Shown here piece by piece: positions 56,901 through 62,900 of a stretch of 64,000 nt of DNA. Every line of letters starts with the position of its first letter. Positions within the stretch are counted from its first letter, which is position 1. The translations under genes were made by a program, and so were the position numbers. The notes below the pieces were generated by a model. It saw only the letters and a list, made by a program, of their open reading frames with translations. It was not told where the DNA came from and did not search any database. Source of the stretch: Ptychodera flava. Its lineage: Eukaryota > Hemichordata > Enteropneusta > Ptychoderidae. The stretch lies in NCBI RefSeq assembly GCF_041260155.1, contig NC_091944.1, positions 17,457,772-17,521,771 on the forward strand. The letters are read 5' to 3'.

Positions 56901-59900
56901 CTGTTGCACTGATATTAGAATGGACAAAGTCGTGCAAGTGTATGCTCAAGATGTAAAATTTCAAAAAGATAGTGCAACTGAAGGCATGTATAAATTTTGC
57001 TGTATTGTAGTCATATTTTGTAATGTTGTAAATTGCCTCGTATCTTTACAGTTGCTGCTCGATAAATATCTTATTTCCAAGGCGTCTACACCAGATAGCA
57101 AAGTATTTTATTTAAAGATGAAAGGAGATTATTACCGATATTTAGCTGAAGTTGCCGGACCAGAGAAGCAATGTAAGTCACTACGATAATTTTACAGAGT
57201 TACAATTCAAGTTCTGGCACCTTACCCTAAATCAAGGCAAGTGAAAAAATAAACTGTAGGTTTCAAGACAGGGACTATCTGAAACAGGTGACATAAAACA
57301 TGAATTGAGCATATCTACTATCCTGAGCTCAGGGACTGTTGGTTTTTATGACCAACAATAATCAAGAAGGAAGTTCAATCAATTCTATTACTCTGTTATT
57401 ATCACAAGGATGCTGATACAGAATATCCTGGAGATGCCAAATAAATCAAAATTTGGGAAGTGTATGTGTTTGGAGAACTCGGATAAGGCCTGTGATTGAA
57501 AGGGCTAGTAGCCACAGGAGTGGTAGATGTGCTTAAGTTGTGCTTGGCCTCTCATTAACTCTTCTGATGGAACTTCCAAAGGTGATACGAATTGTAACAG
57601 GTGGCAATGTGTTCCTGTAGTGCAACTTCTGTGATTCACACACCTATATTTGAAAAATTTTTGCCTCTCAAGATAGTGCTGTGTATAATGTAACTTTGAA
57701 ACGAGTTTACTACCAGCATTAGGCCTCTACCCTTGGATAGTGTAGTTTTGGCAAAATCCAATGATGTGGATATAGAAATGCATAAAAATTCAAATATTGT
57801 CATTTTCGTGAAACTTTCACCAAAGATTGTGAATGATGTCATTTTTAAAAGAATATTCAAAAAGTGGTTTCACATTTCTAGATTTGGAGATGATTTGGCA
57901 AGAGTATTCCTTTTTGTACAAATGAACCTTGAAAAATAGTTACTCGGCACTTTTTCATTGCACTTTGACAAATGGTACACAAAAATTTATGTACATCGTC
58001 AGCAACATGCATTTTCTTCGTAGAATTTACAAGTCATTTGTAAAGGAATCTTTTAGAACTCTACGCTGCAAGAAATCTCAGTCTTAATCAGTTCCTTACA
58101 TAATTTAGGGCTTAAATGGTCAAAATCGTGTGAAACTACACAAAATCAAAAGGGAACTTCATGTTTCTGTACAGTGTGTCAGAACAAGTAAGATAAGAAC
58201 TACCTTTTCACAGCATATTTCTTGTCTAATCGCTGTACCTTATGACATATGTTGTTTTGAAGAAAATGACAACAGTTTACTTTTGCATAGTCACCTGTTT
58301 TATCGTAGAATGTGCCTCATAAATATCTACAATTCTTTTTCGATATACCTTGTGTCAGGGCTGATTTCAAAGCTCTTGGAGCAAGAAAAATGTTCACTGT
58401 CCTTAGTTTTCAATTATCAAAATTTCATTTTCCCGTTAGAGTTAATACAGGACTTGTGGTCATTTTGAATTTAAACAATCAGGCAGTGTCGGGTGATTTG
58501 TTTCTCTACTATCAAACTTTGCATGATGACCCCTGACTTTTATTCTTGATTTGGTAAGAGAATACTCAAAAGTTTCATTGATGTGAAGTTGAAACAAGCA
58601 TTTGTAGCCCCTCACTTTGGAGGCGCATACCACAAAATCATTCACATGGAAATTCAGGAAATGCCATTGGAATTTGCAGCAACCTGATTGTTGTCATAGA
58701 TTTCAGCTTGCCAAGTGTGGCTGGTGGATTCTGACTGTTCTAAAACCTTAAAATGTAGGGAAGGCACATTAACATTTCATTATGCAGATCTTTTAACATC
58801 TTGATTAGTGGCGTCTTGAACTAGCTGTCTTACCCCTTGAGATAATCCCCATACAACGAACAGCTCATATTGTGATACTTTTTCACCTCGGGCATACGCC
58901 AATCAGAATCTACTAGTAGTGTATCTCACAAGGTTTGCCTTATCACATGCCATGCAAATAAACTAAATATCCATGTATTTTTCCTGCAATTGTCTTTTTG
59001 ATCAACTGTGTGTAGCCTTGTAAACTATGATGATTGATAATATGATGGTCCATGACTTTGATGATTGTTATGAATTGCCTGAATGTCTTCATATTATTCT
59101 TCCTTTTTTTACAGCAATTGTTACCGATTCACAAAATGCTTACTCAGAAGCATTTGAAGTTAGTCAGGCAAAAATGCAGCCAACACATCCAATTCGTCTC
59201 GGTTTGGCACTGAACTTCTCAGTATTTTATTATGAAATTCTTAATTCTCCACAAAAAGCCTGTGAACTTGCGAAAAAGGTTAGTAGCAATAACTCCTTAT
59301 AACAAAAACCAAGTAAACTAGAAATATTTTTTTACTTTGTGCAGTTTTCTTTCATTTGCATTTGTACAAGACAGTGAAACTACAGACAAACTATTCAAAG
59401 GTACCTTATCTTGTTCTTCAATGACTAAAATGAAATGTCAAATGAAAAGAAAAGCATTTACTTGGTTTATGTTATAACGGTTTCTGTACTGTCCTTGTTA
59501 ATAAGTTCATAGGGTTTTTCAGGAGCGTATAGAATTTCATGATAAAATACTGAGAAGTTCAATGACAAACCGTATCAAATTTGACGTGTTGGCAGCAATG
59601 AGGGGCCATGACTTTGATGATTGTTATGAATTGCCTGAATGTCTTTTCTTGTTATTTTTCCTTTATTACAGCAATTGTTACCGATTCACAAAATGCTTAC
59701 TCAGAAGCATTTGAAGTTAGTCAGGCAAAAATGCAGCCAACACATCCAATTCGTCTCGGTTTGGCACTGAACTTCTCAGTATTTTATTATGAAATTCTTA
59801 ATTCTCCACAAAAAGCCTGTGAACTTGCGAAAAAGGTTAGTACCAATAAGTCTTCTAACAAAAACCAAGTAAACTAGAAATATTTTTCAATTCATGCAGT

Positions 59901-62900
59901 GTTTCTCTTCTGCATTTGCAAAAGACATCAGTGAAACTACAGACAAACTCTTTAAATGTACCTTATTTTGTACTCCGGTGAGAAAAATGAAGTGTCAAGT
60001 GAAACAAATAACCATTACTTGGTTTTTTTGTCACAAGAGTAACTGTACACCCAATTTTCATAATTTGTAGGCTTTTTCAAGAGCGTAAAGAATTTCATAA
60101 AATACTGAGTTCAGTGCCAAACCAAGACAAACTGGATGAGTTTGCAGCATTTTATATCATGATGTGCCATAACTTTTGGTGATCATTACAAATTGTCTGA
60201 ATGTCTTTCCTTGTTATCCTTTGTACAGCAATTGTTACCTATTCACAAAATGCATACTCAGAAGCATTTGAAGTTAGTAAGGCAAAAATGCAGCCAACAC
60301 ATCCAATTCGTCTTGGTTTGGCACTGAACTTCTCAGTATTTTATTATGAAATTCTTAACGCTCCTGAAAAAGCTTGTGAACTTGCGAAAAAGGTGAGTAG
60401 AGTAAAGCCAAGTAAACGTTCTTAATTCCATTTTACTTTTCCAGTTAAATAGTTTTTCTACAGCTTCACTGACGTCTTTTGTGATGAAAATGCATATGAG
60501 AAGAAAGTCACAGGAATTGACAAACATTTCAAGCTTTATTTTACCAATTTGAAGTTTTCCGTTCAGGGCTTAGTATATGGCTTTGTAGAAATCAAGTGCT
60601 GATAGTAGTAGTGTGTAACATGCTTACTCTCAAAATGGTTTGAAATTGTTGAATTTTGCCCAAAGAGCATGTCTGAGGAATATGAATATTCATTTGATCG
60701 CCATGCAATTTAATGTAGCTACCTTGCAAAGCATTTGACATGATTTGTGAAAAGTAAGAAAACGTTTGAATGGGAGATTTCAACCTTTTATTTTGACAGA
60801 CTTAAGTTACAAGTGCTATCAAAGCACTGGGGAACTGTCCAAAAGAACAATATGTGTCTAAAATACATCAGTGTTCTTAACAAATGAAATTAAAGGCGGG
60901 CGGCTAATTAGCATATGTATTTGCATAATATTTGCATACAATTTACATATCACCAGGGCTATTCACAAGGCACTCCAGTGATGAGATATACTTCTGACAT
61001 TCTCAATATTTTTCTCCATTCAGCAGTGATTAATGGCAAGTTATACAATTATTTTTACATTTAAATCCTGTCTATTTACTTTAAATAAATAATAAAACAT
61101 CAAAAGTGAAAAAAAACACATTGAACTAATACAAACAATACACAATTTAGTAAATATATTGCACAATACCAACATGAAAATTCAAAAGTAGGCCTACATG
61201 AGAAGTAATCAGTGTTCGAAATAATCGGTGGCAAATGGTGGCACGTTTTCATGTGACCCTCTGTTACTATATGTTTGTCTGTAGCCGGATTGGTAAAGCC
61301 ATGAACGTCTTTTTTTTACGTCCATGACAAGTTGACACGGGACTGAATAATGCACTAAGTTACAATGCGGAGTCAGCGGAGCATGCCTGCAGAGAAACAT
61401 ACGTTGACTTTAAAACTCAATTCATAATAAAGGGAGGCCCGAAAAAAATGATACCAAGTATTTCCAAGAGAAAGATTTGAAATTTCATCGACTCTTAGTT
61501 CGGCAAACGTACAAAACTTCGACAGCTGCGCGGCGTAGGCTGCCATGCACGTTTGTGTGGAGCACGCTGCGCACTAGATCTCGATCACACGCGACCTTTG
61601 AACTGTACAGTAGGCCTACAGAACCGTATGTACGATTTACCAACGTAAAGTTGGCGTCATCCTCATCCTCATCCTCAGCCTCAGGGGTCACGCGAAAGTG
61701 AGGATGAGGATGACGCTACAGCGTCAGCTTCACGGCGTCAGATCCGATTATTCCCGAATGCGTCTGATGGAACAATAAGTGTAAAAACGACTTTAAAAAT
61801 GTGCTCCAAGTTTCATATCACTGTAAATGTTAATCAAAACACAGTGGGGTATGTATTTCATAATATTTAGTAACCTAAATATCCGTTTCTCACGATGTAG
61901 TTATAACGCAATATTCTTAGCCCTTAATTTCCTTAAAGTTCAAAGGTTGTATGTTTAATACGTTGACTTTTCAGGCCTCAAGTCATAGTTATACGAGTTA
62001 ATTGTTTTATATGTCCTCTGAATAATTAGGGCTTTTATATTGCCTCTCATGGTGGCGATTTTTACACATTTCGGACCACGTATACTTTTTTGCACCAATT
62101 TTTGGAAAATCTTAACGCAAGAGTTGAGAGGATACCAACAAACATATCCGCGGATCCATGGACTGAAAATTACGAACATTTCCAAAGAACTAGTCTGTAT
62201 GAGATATTCTAACGATAAAATATTACCTACGAACCAGTTTTACGATTCAAAAGAAAGTTGAGAAAGAATGGAGTTGTTATTTTCTTAAGTTTTGGGCGAA
62301 TTTTATCATTTAACCGTCATCGGGTAGCGCAACTTCGGCAATCTTCGGATACGACGCTGAAGCTGACGCTGAGTAGCGTCATATTCAGCGTCAGCTAGAA
62401 AGGTCACCTGAGGCTGAGGATGAGGATGAGGATGACGCCAACTTTACGTTGGTACCTACGGTACATAGCTGCTGTATTCGGATGATCACACGAATGATGA
62501 TTTTAGCTCGTGCAGTTTCTTTTTACTTCATTTCATTGTGCCTTTGATATTTTAAAACGGTCACGGATTTTGAAACTTGATCAAACGCAACTGCTTCTCA
62601 AAGTCAATCGAATGAATCCATGCAAGTTACGAATGCGTGACAGGAAATGACACACATGGCTTCAACGTCATGTGGACGTACACGGATCTCAAAATGGCTA
62701 ACTTGGCTCGGATACGCAACGACCTGAGCACGCGAAGTACCATACTTTTTTGCATCTGATATTTGTCTCAACCAATCGTACGATTTTAGCCATATCTGAT
62801 CGAAATCACTTTTCCTGACCTTCGGATCCTTACAAGTACGAGACATTGGCGGCAATGGCAGTTGACAATAGCATAGATGCTTTGACTGAGTGTCCGCTAG

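What the first reader, a model, noticed from the sequence alone, without database searches (positions are those of the whole stretch)
59115..60392. Triplicated 14-3-3 exon whose reading phase forces one-of-three splicing
Three tandem copies of one internal exon each have intact splice sites and open frames. Each is 164 nt, entered in phase 1 and left in phase 0. Joining copy a to copy b reads 32 codons out of frame and stops. Skipping all copies joins exon 2 to exon 4 as TGC ATT TGA, an immediate stop. Only single inclusion gives a 14-3-3 protein. I recall that Drosophila 14-3-3zeta uses mutually exclusive exons 6, 6' and 6'' in about the same protein region; if so, this is an independent or very old arrangement. 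I do not know of it in deuterostomes.
Basis: partly seen in the sequence, partly recalled or inferred. Interest (0 to 1): 0.88.

Follow-up and report, generated by a model that had tools for sequence, protein, structure and literature searches.

The report
Triplicated 14-3-3 exon with antisense copies
A 14-3-3 gene carries three interchangeable copies of one exon of which only one can be used at a time, and two decayed reverse-orientation copies of that exon lie between them and could pair with, and hide, all but one of the three.

Summary
Three 164-nt copies of an internal 14-3-3 exon (a 59115-59278, b 59672-59835, c 60229-60392) have intact splice sites, and only single inclusion keeps the frame. 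Copies a and b are identical (164/164), so the array offers two proteins, not three. They differ at four residues; one aligns with human zeta Ser184, a reported JNK site (a/b NSPQ, c NAPE). The phase argument is weak: the neighbouring paralogue has one copy of this exon with the same phase, and 377 of 629 human mutually exclusive clusters have such exons (PMC5740500). The phase filters products; it does not force splicing.

Predicted folding pairs two exons with the two antisense copies and leaves one free; the three such states lie within about 6 kcal/mol, about 118-124 below the unpaired state. Against a selected role, the antisense copies diverge as fast as nearby intron and show no wobble bias. 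No RNA data or second genome was available. New variant of a known kind.

The parts
50672..50977 (+). 14-3-3 gene 2, coding part of first coding exon (ATG to GT donor, 306 nt)
   Evidence: Pfam PF00244 on the joined protein, 337.4 bits
57052..57172 (+). 14-3-3 gene 2, exon before the array (121 nt, ends one base into a codon)
59115..59278 (+). exon copy a (164 nt); encodes ..SQAK..NSPQK..
59481..59597 (-). AS1: antisense, decayed copy of the exon (blastn core 59503-59597, 83% identical to c over 95 nt; in-frame stop)
59672..59835 (+). exon copy b (164 nt), identical to a
60050..60153 (-). AS2: antisense, decayed copy of the exon (blastn core 60071-60153, 85% identical to c over 89 columns; two small gaps)
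60229..60392 (+). exon copy c (164 nt); encodes ..SKAK..NAPEK..; best match of the three donors to U1
63729..63824 (+). 14-3-3 gene 2, exon after the array (96 nt); the rest of the gene lies beyond the window
59042..59597 (.). repeat unit A (exon a + intron ending in AS1)
59598..60154 (.). repeat unit B (exon b + intron ending in AS2)
60155..60410 (.). partial unit C (upstream flank + exon c); similarity to A and B falls off just after the donor site

Best explanation
A young mutually exclusive exon cluster in a zeta-type 14-3-3 gene. Shown from sequence: three sense copies with usable splice sites, two protein versions, only single inclusion in frame, two antisense exon copies interleaved with them. 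Inferred: in the pre-mRNA each antisense copy pairs with a neighbouring exon over about 85-90 base pairs, reaching across the 5' splice site, and so hides it from the spliceosome; with two masks and three exons, one exon stays free and is spliced. Inclusions that escape this are removed as frameshifted mRNAs by nonsense-mediated decay. The functional result is a choice between a protein with Ser at the Ser184 position (a or b) and one with Ala (c). Minimum-energy folds of a growing transcript mask a first, then b (leaving c free), and move the second mask from b to c once c is made (leaving b free), so transcription or folding speed could set the choice.
For: Frames. AS1 and AS2 match the exon at E 5.4e-24 and 1.9e-23 (exon c as query); no further antisense copy scored above shuffled controls upstream of a or downstream of c. 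Duplex energies exon:AS -95.4 to -127.4 kcal/mol against shuffle means of -34 to -40, lowest of 100 shuffles per pair -59.6. Unconstrained fold of 59042-60460 pairs a:AS1 and c:AS2; ensemble energies of the three one-free-exon states -437.7 (a free), -443.7 (b free), -437.5 (c free), against -319.9 with exon:AS pairs penalised; mean unpaired probability of the donor site is lower in the paired exon for a and b (0.16 when paired with AS1 against 0.43-0.44 when free), weaker for c (0.27-0.28 against 0.33) and for b paired with AS2 (0.37 against 0.44). Growing-transcript folds. Sense copies stay intact while antisense copies decay: a versus c 6 of 104 and 6 of 102 differences, AS1 versus c 20 of 104, AS2 versus c 22 of 102, Fisher p 0.006 and 0.002. 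Ser184 of human zeta is reported as a JNK target (PMC8455551, PMC12459269; passages seen).
Against: No transcript was seen. AS1 and AS2 differ at 25 of 110 aligned positions plus 12 gap columns, the same as mid-intron (33 of 148): no sign of constraint. Transitions that would keep G-U pairing are not in excess: 5 keep and 5 break (AS1), 6 keep and 4 break (AS2), with 14 and 13 transversions. The duplex reaches the 5' but not the 3' splice site, and donor masking is weak for c and for b:AS2. Inverted repeats are common here: 24 pairs of 45 nt or more in the window, 6 of them involving these exons, so the antisense copies may be debris of the duplication. The folding is naked-RNA equilibrium at 37 C; one search is a series of minimum-energy folds, not a kinetic simulation. 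One genome only.
Confidence: 0.4

Rival explanations
1. Single inclusion arises passively: splice-site competition picks a copy, and mRNAs with two or no copies are lost because the ancestral exon phase makes them frameshift. The antisense copies are inert remains of the rearrangement (template switching with a short inverted stretch at the junction, then duplication of the unit).
For: Phase shared with single-copy paralogue exon. Antisense copies decay at the intron rate without wobble bias and sit exactly at the unit junctions (59597/59598 and 60153/60155). Donor sites differ in strength: U1 pairing -12.3 for c against -8.3 and -8.1 for a and b. Length not divisible by three is the commonest such class in human (377 of 629 clusters, PMC5740500).
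Against: The predicted duplexes are very strong and reach donor sites, so having no effect on splicing would need explaining; the introns between copies (393 nt) are long enough to be spliced, so a-b joining is not sterically barred.
Confidence: 0.38
2. Only one copy (most likely c, with the strongest donor and the reference-like Lys157 and acidic residue 186) is used in practice; a and b are unselected recent copies.
For: c has the best U1 match. c agrees with both reference chains examined at Lys157 and has an acid at 186, where a/b have Gln at both.
Against: a and b keep frame, splice sites and a polypyrimidine tract, unlike the antisense copies. a versus c: pS 0.14, pN 0.032. a and b agree with both reference chains at Ser184, where c has Ala. 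Recent gene conversion could also keep a and b intact, so this is not decisive.
Confidence: 0.12
3. The exon:antisense hairpins are substrates for Dicer (small RNAs acting on the gene's own mRNA) or for ADAR (editing of the exon).
For: About 90-pair imperfect duplexes are predicted within one transcript. That inverted duplications can feed hairpin RNA pathways is recalled; one search gave only a listing of 8 papers, none on this gene.
Against: No small-RNA or editing data; mismatches and gaps about every six bases; splicing may precede cleavage.
Confidence: 0.07
4. Assembly artefact: haplotypes or repeats wrongly joined.
For: a and b exons identical; spacing exactly 557 twice.
Against: Intron parts of the a and b units differ at 22% with 6 and 12 gap columns, and c lacks the downstream half of the unit; these are not haplotypes of one copy.
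Confidence: 0.03

Closest known systems
Insect 14-3-3zeta mutually exclusive exons (Drosophila, three exons)
   Same: Same protein family, three alternative exons, competing RNA pairings reported (PMC6071210, passages; PMC11802352, passages).
   Different: There the docking site is reported in the intron downstream of the cluster and the selectors are intronic; here the complementary elements are antisense copies of the exon itself, lie between the copies and pair with the exons. Two of the three copies here are identical.
[quoted passage not shown]
   Same: Tandem exons, competing mutually exclusive pairings, pairing partner duplicated together with the exon.
   Different: In that model the pairing loops exons out or brings sites together through introns; here it would cover the exon body and donor. 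The word 'inverted' or 'antisense' does not occur in that paper's main text.
Frameshift/NMD class of mutually exclusive exons (human)
   Same: Exon length not divisible by three, joint inclusion unproductive.
   Different: Nothing in this respect; 377 of 629 human clusters are of this type (PMC5740500 section 7).
[quoted passage not shown]
   Same: Duplicated exons with inverted repeats that could form competing structures.
   Different: Those repeats are intron-intron; according to the passages seen they tentatively loop out exon Ab, and deletions of their stem are mentioned there with a result cut off in the passage.

Membership tests
14-3-3 protein family | Pfam PF00244 match over most of the protein | tested here: met
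   337.4 bits (cut-off 33.2), profile 2-219 of 223, with copy c joined in; best solved-structure match a 14-3-3 zeta chain, E 2.6e-114
Mutually exclusive exon cluster | Tandem homologous exons, same length and phase, intact splice sites | tested here: met
Mutually exclusive exon cluster | Joint inclusion or skipping unproductive | tested here: met
   ab, ac, bc, abc and skip all run into stops
Mutually exclusive exon cluster | Transcripts hold exactly one copy, and more than one copy is used | not testable with these tools
   No RNA data; no whole genome held for the window
Docking-site/selector competing RNA structures | One element that can pair with several alternatives, only one at a time | tested here: met
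   Each antisense copy can pair with all three exons by duplex energy; computed, not probed
Docking-site/selector competing RNA structures | Pairing elements conserved across species or by compensatory change | tested here: inconclusive
   Only within-locus test possible: divergence at the intron rate, no wobble bias; no relatives available
Docking-site/selector competing RNA structures | Docking site in a flanking intron, selectors intronic | tested here: not met
   No antisense copy of the exon upstream of a or downstream of c scored above shuffles; the elements found lie between the copies and pair with exons. Short intronic docking elements were not searched for exhaustively
Insect 14-3-3zeta MXE cluster (common descent) | Same exon of the gene duplicated in insects | not tested
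   No insect genome in the collections used; paper with the alignment not held

The most novel reading that the evidence does not exclude
n-1 antisense exon masks: an array of n exon copies with n-1 inverted copies between them, in which intramolecular pairing hides all copies but one. Cotranscriptional folding would favour c (Ala184, not a JNK target) and equilibrium folding b (Ser184), so folding or elongation speed would switch a 14-3-3 protein between JNK-sensitive and JNK-insensitive forms.
Probability: 0.17. Interest if true: 0.82.

Novelty: new variant of a known kind. Interest (0 to 1): 0.55.

Why it matters
If the antisense copies act, one rearrangement would have made both a tandem exon array and the pairing elements that keep its members mutually exclusive, a shorter route than the duplicated stem-loop arm proposed in PMC6071210. 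It would also be a case where alternative exons of one gene swap the Ser/Ala state at a reported JNK site. If the antisense copies do nothing, the locus still offers a neutral yardstick: the same exon, sense copies kept and antisense copies decaying side by side.

Tried and rejected
Relatives: a scan of viral contigs with the exon peptide gave 1 locus (L001), a short 14-3-3-like stretch at the very end of a 5.3-kb contig, not informative; genome contigs gave 1 (L002, 65% identity, in a bacterial bin from a pond), not read further. The insect 14-3-3 papers by DOI are not held. Rfam at gathering thresholds: 0 matches in the window. Pfam on nine other window ORFs: no match above a curated cut-off; best DEAD, E 0.018.

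Considered and rejected: the phase as evidence of design (the paralogue has it too); three distinct isoforms (a = b); pairing maintained by selection as a shown fact (searches do not show it). The silent identity of a and b is not expected at the mid-intron rate (0 changes in 35.3 silent sites, P 0.00013) but is not excluded at the rate of the 50-nt downstream flank (P 0.056); recent gene conversion of about 59042-59331 with its counterpart is the simpler reading, although the polypyrimidine tracts of a and b differ. The alignment of AS2 places its gaps as one block of six, which raises its mismatch count.

Literature absence: ten searches; none listed a paper on antisense exon copies inside a mutually exclusive cluster or on this array in a 14-3-3 gene outside insects. 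One search listed 10 of 31 papers, one search listed 15 of 27, one search listed 11 of 12, one search listed 12 of 16; the library holds open-licence papers only, so this is weak evidence.

Full report
What is there. Single inclusion of a, b or c reads through as 14-3-3; ab, ac, bc and abc stop after 32 out-of-frame codons; skipping gives Cys-Ile-stop. The joined protein with c matches Pfam 14-3-3 at 337.4 bits, and its best match among 123 solved-structure sequences at E up to 1e-60 (60 shown) is a 14-3-3 zeta chain, 6nyb_C, which I take to be insect (recalled; the call does not name the organism).

Two proteins, not three. a and b are identical over 164 nt. c differs at 9 positions: 4 amino-acid changes (a/b to c: Asp-Tyr, Gln-Lys, Ser-Ala, Gln-Glu) and 5 silent ones. 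By the alignments the Ser/Ala residue (187 in the joined protein) corresponds to human zeta 184, and the others to 144, 157 and 186. Ser184 is described as a proline-directed site phosphorylated by JNK in zeta, releasing Bax (PMC8455551 and PMC12459269, passages). Both reference chains I examined (6nyb_C and human zeta 7exe_A) have Ser there, as a/b do, but have Lys157 and an acid at 186, as c does. Both antisense copies and the paralogue exon read Ala at that site, so the order of change is unclear.

The phase is inherited. A second 14-3-3 gene lies upstream in the window (exons at 6395 onward, 23720-23843, 27998-28158, 28932-29027). Its counterpart exon is 161 nt, single copy by blastn at E 0.1 (the other matches are the array and its antisense copies), and has the same phases. 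So the phase predates the array. A length not divisible by three is found in 377 of 629 human mutually exclusive clusters (PMC5740500 section 7, read in full).

Antisense exon copies. blastn with exon c finds reverse-strand matches at 59597-59503 (83.2% of 95 nt, E 5.4e-24) and 60153-60071 (85.4% of 89, E 1.9e-23). They cover roughly exon positions 57-155 and, less clearly, the donor side. They are the last part of each repeat unit, just before the next unit begins. In a search with exon c, antisense scores upstream of a and downstream of c (19-22) and in intron 1 (25, 23) do not exceed shuffled maxima (23-32); the two inter-copy introns score 110 and 113. None of seven other 14-3-3 exons in the window has a comparable antisense match: best scores 24-29 against 24-28 for one shuffle each; the 29 of the paralogue exon lies in the block holding AS2. 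The antisense copies resemble gene 2's exon, not gene 1's (110 and 113 against 29 and 29).

Folding. Each antisense copy can pair with each exon: -95.4 to -127.4 kcal/mol, 89-94 pairs, covering the exon from about position 57 to 2-10 nt past the exon end; shuffled antisense gives means of -34 to -40. Controls with other exons gave -27.5 to -60.6, the strongest with the paralogue exon. In the 59042-60460 ensemble a pairs with AS1 and c with AS2. With the exon:AS pairs outside a chosen state penalised by 10 kcal/mol per pair, the a-free, b-free and c-free states have ensemble energies -437.7, -443.7 and -437.5; with all exon:AS pairs penalised, -319.9. Donor-site unpaired probability is 0.16 in a and b when paired with AS1 and 0.43-0.44 when free, but c changes only from 0.33 to 0.27-0.28 and b:AS2 only to 0.37; acceptor sites hardly change. 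Folds of growing transcripts give a:AS1 at 59600, a:AS1 + b:AS2 at 60156 and 60240, and a:AS1 + c:AS2 from 60400. Hence the proposal of two masks for three exons and a kinetic/equilibrium choice between c and b. This is computed for naked RNA at 37 C.

Evidence on selection. a/b units: mid-intron 115/148 identical, antisense 85/110 (12 gap columns), upstream flank 61/73, first downstream bases 47/51, exon 164/164. The antisense copies thus diverge like intron. Wobble-keeping and wobble-breaking transitions are 5:5 and 6:4. The sense exon is kept. These results fit the passive rival as well as the masking hypothesis, and I hold the two nearly level. The background is also rich in inverted repeats: 24 pairs of at least 45 nt within 3 kb in the window, 6 of them exon:antisense pairs of this array.

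Origin (inference). An event that duplicated the exon with a short inverted stretch at the junction, as in template switching, followed by duplication of the whole unit, explains three sense and two antisense copies and their positions. a and b were later homogenised around the exon, or duplicated recently there; their polypyrimidine tracts differ.

Verdict. Observation confirmed; interpretation partly supported; the antisense copies are the new point. They make the array a distinctive and directly testable variant of competing-structure exon choice, without evidence yet that they act.

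Noticed in passing
6395-29027: A second, upstream 14-3-3 gene in tandem on the same strand; the exon corresponding to the array is single copy and one codon shorter (161 nt).
   Followed up: yes
48705-49379: Large inverted repeat, 309-nt arms, 93% complementary, 57 nt apart, within a cluster of further inverted repeats from about 45.1 to 49.7 kb; probably a nested mobile or foldback element (inference).
   Followed up: no
61638-62454: 48-nt perfect inverted ends 721 nt apart in the intron after copy c; looks like a terminal-repeat element (inference).
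   Followed up: no
28536-28850: Tandem array of a short unit (gtgtagtagtccactgtatgtaa-like) in the intron of gene 1 after the counterpart exon, seen by eye.
   Followed up: no
9918-10232: ORF with a weak DEAD-helicase match (E 0.018, 15.2 bits, below the curated cut-off of 26).
   Followed up: no
L001 1-339: A 14-3-3-like reading frame without introns at the end of a contig in the viral collection; possibly a chimeric contig.
   Followed up: partly
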